Assembly (NCBI GenBank): GCA_030248295.1
Contig: JASANH010000838.1
Location: 186,001 to 250,000, forward strand
DNA: 64,000 nt
Reading direction: 5' to 3'
Source: Mesodorylaimus sp. YZB2_4
Taxonomy: Eukaryota; Nematoda; Enoplea; Dorylaimida; Dorylaimidae
This document shows positions 1,417-12,958 of the stretch, piece by piece. The position numbers and the translations under genes were made by a program. Position 1 is the stretch's first letter; every line of letters starts with the position of its first letter. The notes beneath the pieces are model-generated. The model ran no database searches. It had not been told where the DNA came from and was given only the letters and a program-made list of their open reading frames with translations.

Positions 1417-2559
1417 ACGATGCCGAGAGATCGTCAATGTGATGCGTGGTGACGTGCGATCGTGATGTCCCTGTTGTGCAGCTGCAGTGTCGACTAAAGC
1501 GAACAAAAAATGAGCTGAATGGTTTGCTCCAGCATGAGTTGCCTCCGTTTTAAGCGATAGAACCTTATCTACACCGCGCTGTAGTCTCGCGCGCAATGAA
1601 AGCCCACTTCGACCATGGCCCATCTCACCTCACGCGCCAAGCTCGTGAATCGAAAACGCAGGTTTCATACGACGTCGAAAAGAATCAGCCAGTATCACAC
1701 AGAGTAATTCTCACATGCTTGGGGAGTCTCAAAAGGCTGCGGCTACCAGCCGTATCAGTCAGGCAACGAAGGACCTCCACCACGTCAGGATCCATGTCTA
1801 AGGCTTTTTGAAGTTGGCCATGGGCGTCGCATTTGGTACAAAGAAGGGCACATAAAAAAGCGCATTAGCCAAGGTTTAACTTTTGATCGGCAGGCCAAAA
1901 GCTAAGGCATGATATGAAGCGAAGCGATACCAATCTTTGTCTCCTTACTCTTTGAGATCCCATGGCATGGTGCAATGCCATGTATGTGGGGGCTTTAGGG
2001 CGTAGCTTGCCGCTAGGGCCCTCCGCTCTGTCTTTAGACATTTACGTATTTCTCTCATTCATTTATGACATCTAGGTTTGGCACTTATAGAATTCCATGG
2101 AGCCACAAGTACGGATGCCTCTAAAAACTATGGCAAAAACCATCAAGCTACCAGATGTGATCACGATCGTAGACCTGAAGTCTTTGTTTCTGCTCTACTT
2201 GCGGCTATGTGTTATTTGTTCCTAAATTTCCTGTTATCCACTTTCATGTTTAGTCAGAGTTGCGGCGTATGACCAGCTCTAGGAGTAGAAAGGACACAGT
2301 TTCATGGGCCTTCAAAGAAGTATTGCTGACCCGTGACTGAGCCCTTTGTTAGCGTAACTAATGTCGAATCATTCAGAGTGCACAATGATGGGCGACAAGC
2401 CAAGCTGTGCTACAGAACAATGAATTAGCCTTTGCAGAACATGATGATTTTGGTGTGTGCGTTCAGTTGTCGTCCAGTAGGAAAGGACCAGTCTTGACTG
2501 TGGGCGGTTATGAATTACACGGGCTGCTTGACTTGAAGCAGAATTTGAGTTTTTTCGGC
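1417..2559. other. intergenic region, nothing recognised
   Basis: No convincing coding region. Short open frames here lack family motifs and plausible splice structure. The 3' part may contain decayed upstream sequence of the retrotransposon that becomes recognisable at about 2560. Confidence 0.6.
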
Positions 2560-2931
2560 CAAGCGCTTACGGTTTGTTTTCCAGGCGTTTGTGGCTATTG
2601 TCGGCAGCATTCCACAACGATCCGCTGGCTGTGCACATGGGAGAGGATCGTACTTACTCACGTCTGGAAGACAGAGTGTATTGGCCTTCAATGCGTAAAG
2701 ATGGGCACCAATACTGCAAGTCGTGCCTAATCTGTGCTCGTAGAAAGCATCCTCATCGCTGGGGTAAAGCTCCTTTGGTTTCTATACCAGTTGGTGCTCT
2801 AGTCGAGCGTGTCACCATGGACATATGCTTTTGCGATGACAGATATGCGTACAGAGACGGTAGCTCGTATCTTTGTGGAACACATTGTTTGCCGGTTTGG
2901 ATGCCCGCGTTCAATCTTGACCGACCTGGGT

Positions 2932-3218
2932 TATGCTATGCTATGCTTTGCTATTTTACGTCACCCAAGCACGTTGCCATGCACTCAAACGGGGCGTCAC
3001 AAATAAAAATGAAATAAAAGTCACGAGAGCTTTCGAAGTTGTCATGAAATATGCTGTATAAAACATGGATATGAACTAAAAGCCATTTCATATCGAAGAT
3101 CATTCCACAAGATCATTGCTGAGTATTCGAATGATTGCTTGCCTGCTCTTGCACTTTTCAGTCCGAATTGCGTGCAGAACATTGATCATAGCACATGACG
3201 ACTCGTCACTCGTTCACA
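2932..3218. repeat. insertion inside the integrase core
   Basis: Integrase coding stops after ILTDLG and resumes with SQFTSDLIKN at about 3219, which together would give the usual D-x-GSQFTSD motif. The roughly 285 bp between carries no coding similarity, starts with a TATGC short repeat and is AT-rich. No terminal inverted repeats or clear target duplication were found, so its type is unknown. Confidence 0.5.
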
Positions 3219-3545
3219 GTTTACATCGGACCTGATAAAGAACATCTGTCGATTTTTGAATATTCGCAAGTTGTCCACTACGGCCTATCGTCCACAATGT
3301 TACGGACAAGTGGAACGATATAATAAAGTGTTGATCGACTGCATCGCCGTCTACACGAGTGCTCACCAAGAAGACTGCGATGTGTTCATTCCTTTGTTCG
3401 CATTTCGCACCAGCGTGAATTCGTCGACTGTTTATTCGCCAGCTCAACTCGTGTATGGCCGTGATTTGTCGTTTCCCATTGACTGCGTCTTTGGATTGGA
3501 CGGGGCTCGACAGTTTTTGCGTGTCGATTACGTGACGTACTGTAG

Positions 3546-4322
3546 TTGAAGCAGAAGTTGACGGATGCATACAGGATTGTAACAGAAGAAATCGCAAAGT
3601 CACAACAAGCTCAAGCCCAGCAGTATAACAAATCAGTTCATCGAATGCCATTCAAGGTCGGATCATTGGTGATGGTCAAGAGAAACGCAGCGCCGAGAGG
3701 CTTGTCGACAAAATTACTGGATCGATTTTTGGGGCCTTGGGCCGATAAAGGATGATACAGGATTCTTGCAATGCCTTTGCCTATAACCACGTGCATTCGT
3801 CCTCTACTTCAGCCTGGATCAGATAAGTTGGTTCACGTAAATCATTTGCAGTTGTTTCATGGAGACGTGTCTGGTCGAGTACAGACACCCAGTGTTGCTG
3901 CGTCAGCATCAAGGCAGGATGCGCTCACGGATCATGAGATTTTCGTTGATAGCGATCAAGAAGAATGGGTAGATGTGGGAGGAGAGGAAGGAGGCATTTA
4001 TACACCTGGTGGGTTGACAGCCTTTCCTCCTGGTTCGTTAGTTTGGGCGAAGATGAGACATGTGCCATGGTGGCCTGCTCGTGTTCTGCCAGAGTCGGAA
4101 GCTTTGTGGCCGAAGCCGCGTACAAGAGGACCATGGGTTTTGGTATATTTTTTCAATGATCGGAATCGACAGGCTTATGTGCATCAGAGTGACGTCGAGG
4201 AATATTTCGCCAGCAGGGACAAGCACTCGTTGAGGAAATCGAATATCCTCGTGGCTATGGCTGAGTTGGAGCAATTCGCAGACTCTCAAGCGCGCAATGC
4301 AGTATCGGAGGCTTTGGAGTAA
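3546..4322 (+). CDS. integrase C-terminus fused to a PWWP domain (one stop codon)
   Basis: An open frame containing the integrase tail and then a PWWP domain, interrupted only by TGA at 3753-3755. Before the stop are the helical linker and GPY/F-like segment. After it (numbering from the Met at 3771), residues 18-30 resemble the VHVNxL end of retroelement integrases and residues 58-74 are an acidic linker. Residues 88-150 are a PWWP domain: LVWAKMRHVPWWPARVL, then LVYFFNDRNRQAYV. The PWWP core (99-102), the cage Trp and the strand Phe residues (127-128) are present. PWWP domains in host proteins bind methylated histone lysine (H3K36me type) and DNA. At the end of an integrase, one could steer integration, as chromodomains do in chromoviruses. 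The domain assignment is seen in the sequence; the targeting role is inference. I know of no described integrase with this domain but cannot search. Confidence 0.8.
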
Positions 4323-6246
4323 ACCTTAGTTCGCTGGCGGCTAGCATCTCGCTTTTTTGCGTTTTGGTTTTTCTCTCTTGGTCGGGCCGCCCTAGTAAAC
4401 GGCTGCTCTCGTATCGCGTCTCGGGTCGCCCCTATATCGCGTGGCACGGCGGCCAGTTCACAGGAGGTGCCCCTAGCTTCGCGGGAAGAGTGGGATTGTG
4501 GTTGGGGCTTGCGAATGTAGTGTTTATTCACAAGCACCAACAGCGATAAGTCCAAAAACGAGACTGAACAAGCCTGGGGCTGACGACCGGTGTGATGAAG
4601 TTGGCTGGGTTGTGACCTACCGACCTAACCACACCACACTCAACGAAGCTTACCCAACGTGCGTTGGCGATAGGGCGTGGATTGATGTTGACGCCGTGTG
4701 CCCAAAATACGTGCCATATGCGCGATCAGAACAAAGACACAAAAACGTGACCCAAAAGATACGAATTTATCGACTTGACGTTGATCGCACCAAATATAAC
4801 CCTCCTTATATACATTGCCTAAAGCACGTACCTGGGAAAGAAAACCAGTCACAAGTAAACAGATACAAGGAACTGCACCCATCATCGATCACAAAAACCA
4901 GTCAAATGCATACGTCCAGGCAGGCGAAGAGACACCATTCCAATTCGTGATGCGCAAGGGCTAGCCTAAATCCGAGGTCAGAAACGGGGTGAAAGTGCAT
5001 GGTGGAGCCAATAAATTGGGGATATGATAATGAGTCTGATCTATGCCTAACTTGCTTTCCTTGACTGATGATATAAACGCTGGCATGGTCCAATCATCAG
5101 GCGGGAAATTCGAATATGGAAGTAGCCTTGTCACACTGGTCCGCTAGGCTCGTCCGCCGTCCAGCCCCGCCCTGCCTTAGCCCGGCTAATCGTAAGACAG
5201 GAAAAGAGGGTGGACGACGGTGAGACCCCTAGTGGAACAGACGACTGGCCGACTGGCCCACAGGGTCACGCTTTGTTTAAAAAGGGGACGAGTTTAATGG
5301 GCGTGAATACCTTATCTGCTCCTATCAGTGCACTGATTCAGAAATTATCTCTCCTAGGTCAAAGCCAGACACGAGGCTGATTGTGAGAGCGAGATCGAGG
5401 CCGAGTGACTGGTTTGGTTTGCACGTATTGGGCGGTGCCTGGTGTCCACATGGTGGGCCCACGTGGTATCCTTCCCCCCCCCCCCCCCATCTTGGTATTT
5501 CATAGGACGAGGAATCTGGGTGGATACCTTATCAGGACGCATAAATTATACACGAGGTGCCGTGGGTTGAGTGGGTTCGTTCCTTGGCTAAGACCCTCCA
5601 TTGGCTTGTCCTAGTTTGCCCTCGGGATAGACCAAGGATTTCACTGAGCGGGGTAGAGTTGCAATTCCTCAACATTCTTCAGCACAAATACAAAATTCCG
5701 ATAGCAAATCCCACTGATCGCAAATGACTGACTGCTCGGAAAAACAGCACTTGGAGTCAGCGACGACTTCCTTCGCAATATTCTGTATCGGCCTAATTTT
5801 GCACCGCTGCTTACGACAGCAGAGAACCGTCACTCCTCTGTCATAATCTGTTCTATCCGGCCTGTGTTTCTGAATAGTTGAGGGCCTTCTTTAGCTCTTC
5901 ATGAATACAGCCTCTGGCCTGACTTGATTTTAAGCCATTTCAGATCGCCCGAACCCGATCTCAAGCAAGCAAAACCGCCATTTTAAAACATTTCTTATTC
6001 ACACTGGTTCCCTTTCTTGAAGGCTGCTGTGCAAGGACCATTTACGGCTTTTGATAATATCCATCGTACGTCATCTTCACCGTCTTGTTGTAGTCTGCTA
6101 TGCCAAACTGTATTTGGCTTTCTTATCATGCTGGGTGTGTACGCCATCGTCCCATGGGTCAGGAGGGGAGAGAAATACAGCGGCCAAACTGTGCATAGGC
6201 TCATTCATTCTCTGAGCGAGCTGCCAAGTAAGAACACGGCGGAAGA
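4323..6246. other. intergenic region with a C15 tract
   Basis: Nothing coding is supported. It may hold the 3' flank or LTR of the upstream retroelement, but no paired LTR was found. A homopolymer of 15 C lies at 5474-5488. Confidence 0.55.
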
Positions 6247-9200
6247 ATGCTTCCAGCTTTACTGCTCGTTTTAACGCTTACTCTAGCCTTTATATAGTAA
6301 GTGAAGCGTACCAAAACGAAGTGTAGTGAAAAATAGGGATCATACGTTTTAGCCATCTCTACAACCGAAATCAGATATTCAAGCGGCTTGGTATCCCTGG
6401 CCCTGAACCTAAGCTACTCGTTGGAAATATATTTGATGTGTTTGGAGAATCGAATGTAAGAGTTATATCTTATCCTTTGATAGAGCAAGGCACACAAAAA
6501 ACTTTAGCCTTTAGCGGGAATTGAGCCCTCGCCTTTTGAAATTATAGGGCTCCTGGTTTTTAATCCGGGTCGCGTCCGACTCCTAAGCATCCACTTCTGG
6601 CTAAACAACCAGTCCAGCCCCGTTGGTGCCACAGAATCGGTCATTTTCAGGTTCAGCCCTTGCAACTAAAAAAATGGACCAAGCAATACGGACCTGTATA
6701 CGGGTAAGGTTGTGGGCCTGAGCATTATGCCTTGGATTAGAATGTCTCATTTAGATATATGGAAGGAGGCCGACCGATGTTGGTCATATCCGATCCAGAA
6801 ATGTTGCAAGAAATCATGGTGAAGAAATTTGATTATTTTCATGGACGAAAGGTGAGCTACAGAAAATAGCCATACTTAAATTCATATAGTGCTGTACTTC
6901 TGTACCCACTTCAGGAATTCGCATTGCAACTGGATCCAGACAGCAGCGATGAGCGAGTGGACATGTTCATGGCCCGTGGTGCCAAATGGAAACGATTGCG
7001 CGTCATCAGCAACCCCACTTTCACTGCAGCTAAGATCAAACAAGTAGTCTTGAATGCCCTTCAGACAGAATTCGCAATGCATTTCTTTCAGATGATACCA
7101 AAAGTTCATGCTTGCATCAAAGAGGCCTTGGAAATTCTAGAACAGAAGCGTCTTTCTGGGAAGAGCTTTGATATTTACAAGTGTGGTTGATTTTGGACTT
7201 GCATGGTCAGTTTTTAGCGTGGTTTGTGTTTAGAGTCTATCAAGCATTGACAATGGACGTGATCGGTCGTGTGGCGTTCGCAATGGAGACATCAGTCCAG
7301 AGAGATGAAAATAACGACTTGCTCAGGTTGGGCAACGGTCTCTTCCGAAGACAACGGGGTCTGATTTTGTTTCTGCCGAGTATGTATGTACTGTATGCGC
7401 ACAGAAGATGGTCGTTCCAGAGTGGGGTCGATTTTCGGCCTTCTCCCGTGGGGTAGGGGGCTGAGGCTATCCTGCCAGTCTGCTGATCTGCCGCTCTCTG
7501 CTTCGTATGGTGCAATAGCTAAAGCTATGGTGCAATGCAATATCGGGGTCTTGGCCTAGCGGGTAGGCGTCTGCCTCTCACGCTGGGTGCGCACTTACAG
7601 GGGAGGGTTCGACTCCCGCCTCGGTACAAAATGATTGTCGTTTATTGTGTTCCTTAGCCCTCGAATGCGCTGTATAGTGCTTGGCTATGGATAAAGTGTG
7701 ACATGACATGAGCTTCATTAGTAACGCTCTTCATTAATACAGTACGTTACCGTACATACCTCATCTCCACTCCTTTTTGATTGAAAATCTGAAAATCTGA
7801 CAATCAGTGCAACGAAATTCAGTTGTATTTCAGCCATTCTACCGATGTTACGACCACTGGTGTTCTCCTTTGCGTTATACACGGCTGCGCTGAGAAAAGT
7901 TGAGTGGGTATTCCTGCATGATCGAATGAACAAGCTGGTGGAAGCAAAACGAAAAGAAAAGGTACAGCATGGTTTCTGATAATCTATTATTTATTTTCTA
8001 TCAATCTGAAAATTGTTTTCTATCATTTGTTTCCAGACAAGCAACACTGGCAGCGATTTTATCGAACTACTGCTAAATGCTGAAGCTGATCCTAATGACA
8101 CTAGCTTTGATACTGCTGTCGATGGAGATGGGTCCATGAAAGCATTGAGCATTAAGAAGAAGCTGACAACTGGGGTAAGTTCACATGCGGGTGTAGGCTT
8201 GTCTGAAAAGCGCCTTCTGCAGCAAAACCGCAGTTGGGAGCATCACTCATGGAAGCGAGGTTTAAGCTACGAACCAGGTCGGAAGACATGATTGTCTCCG
8301 CTGACCATCCCCCAAAACTCCAGACGGATGTATAGCGTGACAGGCGAGTCTTCGCAAGAGCATTAAGTGGTCTCAATAGAAGACAGGACTGCAGAAAATC
8401 TATCATAACGATCATCGTTGTAGGAAATCGCTTCACAAAGCTTTCTGTTTCTGCTCGCTGGATACGAAACCACGTCGACAGCCATGGCCTACGCGACTTA
8501 CTTGCTCGCGAAGCACCCAGAAGTTCAAGAGCGTTTGTTGGCCGAGATCGATGAACATTTCTTAGATGGTCAGGTGGGAGTCCTCATTTAGCCTGGGTAT
8601 GAGGAGATGATGACACTGAATGTGCTATCATTTAGGAGATCAACTACGAGTCTGTGCATAGGCTTCAATATCTAGACAGCGTTATCAACGAGACATTGCG
8701 CCTCTACCCCTTGGGCTCCCCGTAAGTCTGTTACAAGAGTTGTGCACAAATATTTAGTTTTTCGCTTTAGTGTAGTCGCTCGGACGTGCATGAAATCATG
8801 TACTATAAAGGGTGTGAATATTCAAAAAGGTATTACCGTACTGGCCGACGTGTGGTCCATGCATCACAGCGAAGATATATGGGGACCTGATGCCAAGGAG
8901 TTCAAACCTGAGAGGTTAGTTCTATATTCTTGTGTCAACTATGTGTTACAGTACTGCTTGTTGCAATGACTTTACCTCTTTCACGAGTCCTGGACTGTCC
9001 TTCAGATTCCTACCCGACTATTCCCCCAAGCCGTCGCATCCATTTGCTTATCTTCCATTTGGTGGAGGACCTCGCATTTGCATTGGTATGCGCTTCGCAT
9101 TGCTGGAGTTAAAAATGGCTCTATGCTCTATCCTACTGCGATATCGCTTTAAGTGGACACCAGAAACACAAGTAAGTGCAAACTGCCCTATTTAGTTCCC

Positions 9201-9304
9201 TGTTAGCTATGCTTCAGTTTTAGGAGCCTTTGGAAGTTCGATTCACGGAAGTGACTGTAGCGCCTCGCTATGGTGTCCACGTAGGACTGGAGAAGAGAAA
9301 CTGA
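6247..9304 (+). CDS. cytochrome P450, clan 3 (CYP3/CYP13-like), tandem copy 1
   Basis: Haem-thiolate monooxygenase of the endoplasmic reticulum, 519 residues in 14 exons: 6247-6296, 6353-6455, 6651-6703, 6755-6851, 6915-7043, 7092-7180, 7234-7379, 7834-7961, 8037-8174, 8424-8573, 8636-8721, 8771-8914, 9006-9171, 9224-9304. The N-terminus is a hydrophobic signal anchor followed by a basic stretch and the Pro-rich hinge GIPGPEP. All P450 landmarks are present: I-helix AGYETTST, K-helix ETLR, the PERF region and haem-binding [10 protein letters not shown] with the axial Cys. The haem-loop context ([13 protein letters not shown]) is typical of clan 3. Length is normal and no lesions are seen. Intron 7 (7380-7833) is long because it holds a tRNA-derived SINE; intron 2 holds a tRNA-like sequence. 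The substrate cannot be read from sequence; clan-3 enzymes often oxidise xenobiotics or lipids. Confidence 0.95.
6513..6592 (-). repeat. tRNA-like sequence in P450 intron 2
   Basis: Read on the minus strand, the segment has a box-A-like start, a possible anticodon arm, a long variable region and a box-B-like GGCTCAATTCC in a potential T arm. It looks like a degraded class-II tRNA or a SINE head. Folding was not computed. Confidence 0.25.
7542..7710 (+). repeat. tRNA-derived SINE, family 1, copy 1 (in P450 intron 7)
   Basis: The head at 7542-7626 has box A (TGGCCTAGCGGGTAGGCG), box B (GGGTTCGACTCCC) in a T stem, and a 7-bp acceptor-like pairing between ATCGGGG and CCTCGGT with wobble pairs. 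A body of about 80 bp follows. Head and body recur at 52694-52850 with scattered differences, which points to a SINE rather than a single tRNA gene. Confidence 0.6.
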
Positions 9305-10390
9305 GACACGATTGCCATTACTACTATTATTAGCGACATGATACGATGCGATAGCGAAGGAAGGTGACTTTGTGCATCAAAGATTTAGGCAGATATGGTG
9401 GCCTCTATGTCTGTGCCTCATCTTGTTTGCGATGCAATTAAACAGGCTTTCAGTAGAACGTAGTATTGCCCTTTGACATCCTTGTGTCGAATACTGTAGC
9501 TGATAATAAAGAGCAAGAATCAGAAAACAACGGCAGTGATGTACTGTATTCAAATTTTCTGCACCAGCACGTTTAGGATGTATATACTGTACGCATGTAT
9601 ATGCACAGAATGCTGAAATGACAGTGAACGCACCGCTATTGACAACAGTATTACGGCCAAAAATAAGGGAACACAAATATCGCGGGAACGCAGGGGTGTA
9701 TCAGTCACAAATCTTTCAGATACAAACATTAGCCAGAGCTCTTTTAGATGCTCCATTCATGCACGCATTGTTTTCCGATTGTGAGCCATATAGATCAAGT
9801 GCATATTCGTATGTAGGGAACTGGTTTTACATTCGGATTCCCCACTCGAACAAAGTTAGTTTTCGCCAGCAGTCAAGCTAGGCGGACGTGAGAGGAATAC
9901 CGCACCAGCAGGTGGTTTCTTGGCGCTGGCATCCCATAATATAGAAAACTAGCCTTAAAAATTTTGAGGTTTGCCTTACAAACGACCCCAAAGTCTATGC
10001 GCCCATTCACACAGCGGCGTATCTCCGATCGCAAGTGTCCACAGACTATCTCCACATGCGGTCACCTTGGATCATACAAGGGCCAGGGCCTAACCCACGT
10101 CCTGCCACGCAAAATCAGTGAGGGCTTATGGTTTACAAATCGACTTCCGCCTTTTGGATTTGAACCCGGAAACCAAACGGCTCATAACCAAGCAACAATT
10201 AAATTTGCGTCTCTGTTTGGATCAGATAATTGTACATATTCTATCCTGACCACGCCCACACGTACAACCTCACAAAAACAACAACCATGCTCTTATTAAC
10301 CGCCGTTAGATGTGGCGTGAGATACGCCATCGCGAGAACGGAGGAACATGTGTACAGCGCTATCAGCGATTTATCACTTTGTTGCCAGGC
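9305..10390. other. intergenic region between the P450 genes
   Basis: No gene is supported. An AATAAA at 9505-9510 could serve the upstream P450. On the minus strand near 10155-10175 there is a box-B-like GGGTTCAAATCC, possibly another SINE relic, without a convincing box A. Confidence 0.5.
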
Positions 10391-10397
10391 TATAAAT
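10391..10397 (+). promoter_or_regulatory. TATA box of P450 copy 2
   Basis: TATAAAT lies 79 bp upstream of the ATG at 10470, a plausible core promoter position with a short 5' leader. Confidence 0.4.
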
Positions 10398-10469
10398 GCG
10401 CTTGTTTTAACCGCGTTCTTCAACTGGCGAGACCCAGTTTGGGAGCAGAGACAACGACTATAAGCTACG

Positions 10470-12958
10470 ATGCTTCTGGAACTATTTATTTTGATCACTG
10501 GCCTTGCGGTCCTCCTGCATGTGTAAGTAAACCTGCGAAAGCCCTCATCAGAGTTAGAAAAACTTCTGTTTCAGCTACTTTACATGGAGAAATGACGTAT
10601 TCAAGCGGTTGGGCATTCCTGGTCCAAAACCAGACCTAGTTGTCGGAAACTTGTTCCACGTGTTTGGTGACAAAAAGGTAAGAGTTTGAAAGAAAAGGAG
10701 AGTTTCATAAGCCGTGTAATTTTTTCCTGTGAACAGGTACAACCGCATGAACTGCAAAAATGGACAAAGGAATTTGGACCTGTTTATGGGTAAGCTGCAA
10801 CCTTTGATTCTGTGTGGACTTGAAGTGAGGAAGAAATTTCAGGTTTTACGAGGGAGGACTGCCAGTTATGGTCACCTCAGACCCGGACATTCTGCAGGAA
10901 ATTCTCGTCAAGCAATTTCAGAATTTCAATGGCAGGAAGGTAATGCCCGTAGATGTTTGGATGTTTGGGTCCTTATGTGATGATTTGTCTCGCATTAACA
11001 CACGCCTAAATTGTCGTGCAGGAATTTGCCATACAACCCAATCCAGAGGAAGGTGGTGATCGAGTGCACATGTTCTTGGCTCGAGGTGCGCAATGGAAAC
11101 GACTTCGGGTCATTTCGAACCCAACATTCACTTCGTCGAAGATCAAGCAAGTACGACTATAATCTTCCACAACCAGCCAGAGGTAACATTATGTCGTATT
11201 TTAGATGCTTCCAAAAGTGCACGACTGCGTGGATGAAATGATGAAAGTGCTAGAAGAGAAACGACAGGAAGGGAAAAGTTTTGACATATATGGGTAAGTT
11301 GTTCGTACCCCAGACGTCGACAGCTGATATCTGCTAGTAATCATGAAATTTTAGGGTCTACCAAGGACTGACTCTGGATGTAATTGCTCGAGTGGCTTTT
11401 GCTTACGAAACCTCTGTGCAGAGGGACCCTGACAGTGAATTACTCCGCTTTTGCAGTGGCGTTTTCCGCAGGCCTCCATCATTCATCTACTTGGCAGCAT
11501 GTAAGTATTGGTTGTTAGGGATAGCAAATGTACAAGCGTGGACCGCTCGCGAGATGCCCGCGAATGAAACAGCCAAACAGAGCACAGTCTAGTGTCAGGG
11601 TGAGATCAAGCACTGTTCTTGCAGGTCTCTTCCCATCCATCCGACGTTATGTGTATTACTACGTTCGTTTACGAAGCAAGTTTGTGCAAAGTGATTGGGA
11701 CTTTTTAAGGGATCGCATTGGTCGAATTATTGAAATTAAAAGAAAGCAGAAAGTGAGTTTTGGCCGTGTTCTCTCTCTTCTATTATTTTTATCCCGCTTT
11801 ATTGAAGGCCAGCGGGCTGCAGGCTTCTGTGGATTTCATTCAGCTAATGCTCGATGCTGAAGCTGATCCGAATGAGATGGATTTTAAGAACGGGGCTGGT
11901 AAGCTGACGAAGGAAATGGAGGTCAAAAAGAAGCTAACGCCAGGAGTAAGCTTACAGGGCAATACTCTTTTGGGAATGAGCTAAGAGATTTTACTTTAGG
12001 AAATCGCTTCGCAAAGCTTTTTATTTATTTTGGCCGGATTCGAGACAACCTCAACATCGCTCGCTTTTACCAATTACTTACTGGCTACACATCCAAAAGT
12101 GCAAGATCGACTGTTGGAAGAGATTGATAAACATATTGAGAAGGCTGAGGTAAGCTGATTGTTGGTGGATGGCTGAGCATAAGTTGTGCTGGGTATCTGC
12201 ATCAATTACATGCTGGGTCCGCTTTCTCCTTGGCAGGATATCAATTACGAATCTGTCCAAAAGCTTCAATTCTTGGAATGCGTTATTCAAGAAGCCTTGC
12301 GGATGTATCCATTGGCATCAGCGTAAGAGAGAGAGAAAGAGAGCTGCTTTAGGCCATTTCCTGTGTCATTTAGTGCTAAGCATAGCACAAAATATTTGCA
12401 TGCAAGTTATTACATGTGCAAAGTTTCGACCGAGACTCTTCCTCTGTGAAACCTGGTGCTGCTTTCAGAGCTGTAAGCCGACACACAGTGGACTCATGCA
12501 CTATTAAAGGATTCACTTTCCCTGCTGGCATGGATGTGGTTGCTGATGTGTGGTCAGTGCACTACAATGAGGATTTGTGGGGACCTGACGTGAACGAATT
12601 CAAACCCGAGCGGTACAGTATTCATTGCAGACTTGTACTTGACGTTGACGCATCCTTGTCCCTTTTAGGTTCGCTTCCAAATCGCTTCCACATCCCTTTG
12701 CCTATATCCCATTTGGTGCGGGTCCCCGTACTTGCATTGGAATGCGATTCGCCTTGCTGGAAATGAAGGTGGCCCTGTGTGCAATTTTGAAGAAATATAA
12801 GATTGTGGAGACGGCAGAAACGGAGGTGTGCTTGAAAAAGTCATCCGCTTGGACTGGTATCAAATTTCTTGTTTCAGAAGCCACTTCAGTTACGCTTTTC
12901 CCAAATCACACTGGCGCCAAAGAACGGTGTGCTCGTGAAGCTGGAAGATCGAAAGTGA
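10470..12958 (+). CDS. cytochrome P450, clan 3 (CYP3/CYP13-like), tandem copy 2
   Basis: Second tandem P450, 517 residues, 14 exons: 10470-10522, 10575-10677, 10737-10789, 10843-10939, 11022-11150, 11205-11293, 11355-11500, 11625-11752, 11808-11945, 12000-12149, 12237-12322, 12469-12612, 12669-12825, 12878-12958. Twelve exons have the same length as in copy 1; only exon 1 (+3) and exon 13 (-9) differ, so the pair arose by tandem duplication. Landmarks: N-terminal anchor, hinge GIPGPKP, I-helix AGFETTST, K-helix EALR, haem-binding [10 protein letters not shown]. It appears functional. The introns are nearly all small. The proteins are clearly related but diverged along their length, so the duplication is not recent and the substrates may differ. 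Confidence 0.95.

What the first reader, a model, noticed from the sequence alone, without database searches (positions are those of the whole stretch)
3546..4322. Retrotransposon integrase ending in a PWWP domain
The integrase tail and a clear PWWP domain (GSLVWAKMRHVPWWPARVL ... LVYFFNDR) lie in the same frame, joined by an acidic linker and broken only by one TGA. Chromodomains at this position target chromoviruses to heterochromatin, and the host PWWP protein LEDGF tethers HIV integrase to H3K36-methylated genes. A built-in PWWP would be a self-contained version of that logic, aiming insertion at transcribed chromatin. I know of no described element with this fusion.
Basis: partly seen in the sequence, partly recalled or inferred. 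Interest (0 to 1): 0.88.

Follow-up and report, generated by a model that had tools for sequence, protein, structure and literature searches.

The report
Retrotransposon integrases with built-in PWWP readers
A large group of jumping genes in this genome carries, fused to the end of its integrase, a PWWP domain, a module that in host proteins reads chromatin marks and that would likely tell the element where to insert, as chromodomains do for other retrotransposons.

Summary
The window copy (2599-4462) is a dead, 5'-truncated Ty3/gypsy remnant, but its tail is a true PWWP domain (Pfam 2.1e-15; fold match). Relatives in the same genome carry gag, protease, RT, RNase H, integrase and PWWP in one open frame (2153 aa in the copy checked, between 182-bp LTRs). 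Of 146 PWWP matches in the genome, 116 lie behind an integrase, including all 35 in frames of 1000 aa or more. Six divergent lineages carry it; five form one clade, the sixth groups with a metagenomic pol that also ends in PWWP. Where measurable the domain is under purifying selection (dN/dS 0.10-0.12, 3 of 9 pairs). One pair of copies shares pol but differs from the linker onward, as if tails are exchanged. Targeting of H3K36-methylated chromatin is inferred, not shown: the methyl-lysine cage looks complete in two E families, nearly so in the window lineage, degraded in B and C. No paper listed in my searches describes the fusion.

The parts
2599..2825 (+). Integrase zinc-binding (H2C2) remnant
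   Evidence: blastn 92% to C180 copy; PF17921 3.4e-17 in the frame 2532-3014
2817..2932 (+). Integrase core remnant, first part, after a deletion of about 70-77 bp
   Evidence: blastn 93% to C180 copy
2933..3211 (.). Insert that interrupts the integrase core; identity unknown
   Evidence: gap between collinear matches (L004 976 and 974)
3212..3546 (+). Integrase core remnant, second part
   Evidence: blastn 89% over 3212-4374 and tblastn 87% over 3214-3537 to C180 copy
3546..3752 (+). Integrase C-terminal part up to the GPY/F motif
   Evidence: translation; 88% identical to C180 copy over 3546-4319
3753..3755 (+). In-frame TGA of this dead copy
3756..4031 (+). Rest of the integrase C-terminal part and acidic linker
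4032..4289 (+). PWWP domain
   Evidence: PF00855 57.4 bits; AF2 model and fold match
4320..4322 (+). Terminal stop of pol
4382..4462 (+). Last 81 bp of the 3' LTR; most of the 3' UTR and LTR deleted
   Evidence: 92.6% to the LTR of the C180 copy, same terminal TTCACA

Best explanation
This is the dead end of a Ty3/gypsy LTR retrotransposon whose integrase carries a C-terminal PWWP domain, which likely tethers the integration complex to nucleosomes and so would choose where the element inserts. SHOWN: the fusion in one open frame, with gag-pol and LTRs in the copy checked; its presence in six lineages and in a metagenomic relative; purifying selection where measurable; PWWP sequence and predicted fold. 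INFERRED: pol is cut so that PWWP stays on the mature integrase; PWWP binds the H3 tail at methylated K36 together with nucleosomal DNA, as in LEDGF; insertions therefore favour transcribed, H3K36-methylated chromatin, most credibly in lineage E (DNMT3B-like cage) and lineage A (three of four LEDGF cage positions). In lineages with a degraded cage (B, C) the domain would bind DNA or another partner. The tail can apparently be exchanged between related elements (F lineage), which would let an element change its address.
Against: No binding or insertion-site data. The Y18 position is not Y, F or W in A, C, D, F and P0018; W21 is L in C and A in B; E2 has L at F44; A2 has L/I at 15/18. In PSIP1, M15A and Y18A strongly reduce specificity. 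dN/dS could be computed for only 3 of 9 pairs; in C, F and two of three E pairs the PWWP has slightly more amino-acid change than the linker before it. 30 of 146 PWWP matches are not integrase-linked. Only 1 of 120 listed relatives elsewhere carries PWWP; two other searches found none. The AF2 model rests on two sequences, pLDDT about 65-84 over the domain.
Confidence: 0.62

Rival explanations
1. The PWWP tail is a nucleosome or DNA tether without mark specificity: it improves integration in chromatin generally, perhaps like an extra SH3-type integrase domain.
For: Cage residues degraded in B and C, partial in D, F, P0018, yet the domain is kept and under purifying selection in C and F. LEDGF's PWWP alone binds the H3K36me3 peptide very weakly (KD 17 mM) and needs DNA contacts (PMC3663649, passages).
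Against: E1 and E3 keep F/W/F at the aromatic positions, and E1 matches DNMT3B and NSD2 best among solved structures.
Confidence: 0.25
2. PWWP has a role other than target choice, for example nuclear entry, RNA or particle function, or hiding the element from silencing.
For: Function untested here.
Against: Its place behind the integrase GPY/F module is the place of the chromodomain in chromoviruses (PMC2774666, passages).
Confidence: 0.1
3. Chance insertion of the remnant beside a host PWWP exon.
For: None found.
Against: Open fusion frames in many copies on different contigs and a metagenomic relative.
Confidence: 0.01

Closest known systems
Chromoviruses (Ty3/gypsy with chromodomain behind integrase)
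   Same: Ty3/gypsy pol order, GPY/F module, C-terminal chromatin-reader type domain behind integrase (PMC2774666 and PMC11541908, passages)
   Different: PWWP instead of chromodomain; 8 chromodomain reference rows branch apart; chromodomain matches of this genome lie in frames of at most 859 aa
LEDGF/p75-lentiviral integrase tethering
   Same: PWWP linked to integrase; LEDGF cage M15, W21, F44 kept in the window copy and A1
   Different: Host protein acting in trans through an integrase-binding domain there (PMC4176367, passages); same polypeptide here
LTR elements with other captured epigenetic domains (methyl-CpG-binding domain in arthropod elements: title seen in a reference list only; m6A demethylase in orchid Ty3/gypsy, PMC9289625: search listing)
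   Same: Host regulatory domain captured into an LTR element
   Different: Other domains and functions

Membership tests
Ty3/gypsy (Metaviridae) LTR retrotransposon | Order protease-RT-RNase H-integrase in one pol | tested here: met
   RT, RNase H, integrase in this order in six lineages; protease over cut-off in C, just under in A, weak in D, not matched in the B, E, F pieces scanned
Ty3/gypsy (Metaviridae) LTR retrotransposon | GPY/F module behind the integrase core | tested here: met
   GP[YW] motif before the tail, read by eye in all six lineages; Pfam SH3_Tf2-1 and Integrase_p58_C matches, where present, are below cut-off
Ty3/gypsy (Metaviridae) LTR retrotransposon | LTRs and target-site duplication | tested here: met
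   182-bp LTR pair and 4-bp TAAT in one copy, C180; not tested in B-F
Ty3/gypsy (Metaviridae) LTR retrotransposon | RT branches among Ty3/gypsy elements | tested here: met
   trees with relatives found
Chromovirus | Chromodomain behind integrase | tested here: not met
   Tail matches PWWP PF00855; no chromodomain match in the pieces of six lineages scanned
Chromovirus | RT/IN branches with chromodomain elements | tested here: not met
   8 chromodomain rows fall in another clade of 13 rows, 100/100
PWWP domain family (PF00855) | Score over the curated cut-off and PWWP fold | tested here: met
PWWP reader of H3K36me | Methyl-lysine cage (PSIP1 M15, Y18, W21, F44) | tested here: inconclusive
   F/W/F at 18/21/44 in E1, E3; M/V/W/F in A1 and window; degraded in B, C
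PWWP reader of H3K36me | Binding to H3K36-methylated nucleosomes | not testable with these tools
   needs a binding assay

The most novel reading that the evidence does not exclude
A previously undescribed, old clade of PWWP-bearing Ty3/gypsy elements, the euchromatic counterpart of chromoviruses: the integrase itself reads H3K36 methylation and steers insertion into transcribed genes, merging HIV integrase and LEDGF in one protein, and elements trade the PWWP tail as an interchangeable address label.
Probability: 0.4. Interest if true: 0.92.

Novelty: new variant of a known kind. Interest (0 to 1): 0.82.

Why it matters
Chromodomains behind integrase are the classic way LTR elements choose chromatin. 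A PWWP at the same place, in several families of one genome and in a relative elsewhere, would be a natural cis version of the LEDGF tether. It makes a clean test possible: elements with and without PWWP, and with complete or degraded cages, live in the same genome, so the effect of a reader domain on insertion sites can be read from natural insertions. A protein that joins integrase to an H3K36-type reader would also inform integration-site research.

Tried and rejected
Chance join to a host PWWP exon: rejected. Relatives by single-protein search: the lineage E region gave no hit among 1970 candidates, the lineage A2 region three hits without PF00855; only the seven-sequence profile found P0018. 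One origin of all PWWP tails: not decided; C + P0018 joins the rest with only 58/77 in the RT+IN tree and 30/73 in the RT tree; the quick tree gave SH-aLRT 80. Insertion sites: right flanks of five A1 copies (882-885 bp) and one 403-bp left flank were read; they are mutually unrelated and I recognised no gene in their frames, but no family scan was run on them; not a test. Species: TTAGGC arrays present, SL1 with up to 1 mismatch absent, a tardigrade-type telomere repeat absent; no name obtained. Papers PMC6673714 and PMC2259100 are not held.

Rows dropped: the RT cut lost eleven rows that spanned too much and two too short, and the integrase cut ten. In one search four long-branch rows (Archocentrus, Coffea, Cordylochernes P0012, Haematococcus) and lineage A1 (its RT and integrase lie on separate pieces, not joined) were left out, leaving 51 rows. 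The reference rows were chosen by hand: 41 of the 123 proteins found. The 53 loci are not a random sample: they were fetched by similarity to the window, by score or by frame length. dN/dS: 9 pairs were run, 6 gave no ratio (saturated or identical at synonymous sites).

Full report
What is in the window. The frame 3546-4322 carries the integrase C-terminal part, an acidic linker and a PWWP domain, with one TGA inside. Pfam gives PF00855 57.4 bits against a cut-off of 25.6. The zinc-binding domain of an integrase lies upstream (PF17921). Comparison with a relative whose frame is open shows the whole remnant: 2599-2932 with a deletion of about 70-77 bp, an insert at about 2933-3211, 3212-4374, and the last 81 bp of a 3' LTR at 4382-4462. 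Gag, protease, RT and RNase H are absent. This copy is dead.

The fusion is real elsewhere. In the same genome (145 Mb, 1067 contigs) the tail piece has 85 matches at E <= 0.001, among them 88-89% identical copies in open frames of 2153, 2153, 2130 and 1424 aa. Read in pieces, the copy at C180 has CCHC zinc knuckles with a sub-threshold gag match, a protease match just under the cut-off, RT and RNase H, and integrase and PWWP. It lies between 182-bp LTRs, TGTAG...TTCACA, 98.9% identical, with a 4-bp TAAT duplication. Five copies (C180, C48, C55, C267, C183) share the LTR ends but have unrelated right flanks, so they are separate insertions.

It is a whole group, not one family. A PF00855 search of the genome gave 146 matches, all over the cut-off; 173 candidates, 150 scored, so a lower bound. 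By coordinates or fetched DNA (an integrase match within 0.8 kb, or a zinc-binding domain within 2.5 kb, upstream on the same strand), 116 of 146 lie behind an integrase, and so do all 35 in frames of at least 1000 aa; 30 of 146 could not be linked and may be host genes or decayed copies. For 53 matches I held the DNA around the hit; one had too little upstream sequence, and all 52 others have integrase upstream, 49 of them in the same frame. Of the 150 best H2C2 hits, 49 have PWWP downstream, 48 of them at 922-1071 bp. Not every gypsy element has it: 101 of those 150 H2C2 hits have no PWWP match within 2.5 kb, and 29 of 109 long integrase matches have none behind them. Two elements without a PWWP match that I fetched (C151, C500) end in a proline-rich tail. 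Six lineages differ clearly: A (window), B, C, D, E, F; each has RT, RNase H, H2C2, rve and PWWP in one frame (A1 was read in pieces, A2 in one). Chromodomain matches number 70, none in a frame over 859 aa.

Outside this genome. A profile of seven sequences from the six lineages found 6917 proteins at E <= 1e-10 (only the 7968 candidates sharing most words were scored); 120 were listed. One of 120, P0018 (1158 aa, JGI source, contig 3688 bp), carries PF00855; 33 of 120 by my count carry a chromodomain. P0018 is 55-59% identical to three lineage C sequences over 1004-1161 aligned residues. Its organism is unknown. Two narrower searches found no PWWP relative.

Descent. In the RT tree A, B, D, E and F form one clade (97/94) and C + P0018 another (100/100). 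With RT and integrase together (A represented by A2) the values are 100/99 and 100/100; the union of both has 58/77, so one or two captures are possible. The two non-PWWP elements of the genome and the 8 chromodomain elements lie outside both. Branches among the PWWP lineages are at least as long as those within the chromodomain clade, which suggests an old capture.

Selection and exchange. PWWP dN/dS is 0.11 between C419 and C982 (integrase 0.10), 0.12 in F, and about 0.10 between A1 and A2, where synonymous sites are near saturation; the other six of nine pairs gave no ratio. In all three A comparisons the linker has more amino-acid change than the PWWP; in C, F and two of three E comparisons the PWWP has slightly more than the linker. 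So the domain is constrained, but in several lineages it is not a conserved island beside a free linker. Two F elements are 89-100% identical over about 4.0 kb of pol (mostly 95-100%) and drop to 69-74% from the linker through the PWWP; this looks like a tail exchange between related elements, an inference from one pair.

What is known. Chromodomains behind integrase define chromoviruses and also occur in some Ty1/copia elements of diatoms (PMC2774666, passages) and in a brown-alga element (PMC11541908, passages). Full-text searches for PWWP with retrotransposon+integrase (17 listed), gypsy+LTR (5), Ty3+integrase (6), LTR retrotransposon (27 of 28), at least three of PWWP/polyprotein/reverse transcriptase/transpos (30 of 719), nematode+retrotransposon (15 of 17), and for chromodomain and H3K36 combinations (20 of 64, and 15), listed no title or abstract start that describes a PWWP-bearing LTR element. 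PWWP passages read in six further papers concern host proteins or the domain family. Subscription papers, preprints and repeat databases were not searched.

Verdict. A new variant of a known kind: Ty3/gypsy elements whose integrase ends in PWWP. The anatomy is near certain, the targeting role likely, the mark specificity open.

Noticed in passing
L076 and L077 (C68 and C216): F-lineage copies 89-100% identical over about 4.0 kb of pol, then 69-74% from the linker through the PWWP: apparent tail exchange.
   Followed up: partly
C267, C1033, C85, C325 (coordinates): Four close pairs of PWWP copies in opposite orientation a few kb apart; real inverted pairs or assembly palindromes.
   Followed up: no
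window 2933-3211: 279-bp insert of unknown identity inside the integrase remnant, starting with TATGC repeats.
   Followed up: no
window about 53-1414 and 6300-12000: A gene with protein-phosphatase-1 type motifs and tandem cytochrome P450-like genes (direct repeats about 3.8-4.2 kb apart); named from motifs recalled, no family scan.
   Followed up: no
own genome, e.g. C15:246076-246754 and 506601-506994, C60:2-137: TTAGGC arrays, 1573 overlapping exact 30-mers against 0 for the reversed control, partly inside contigs; no SL1 with up to 1 mismatch.
   Followed up: partly
C53:605169-606332 and C232:141459-142622: Frames of 1692 aa with integrase 90% like lineage F but no PWWP match listed: divergent or lost tail.
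   Followed up: no
own genome, chromodomain search: Many repeated partial chromodomain matches (profile 1-38 or 1-42), often in frames of about 72 aa, perhaps another mobile family.
   Followed up: no
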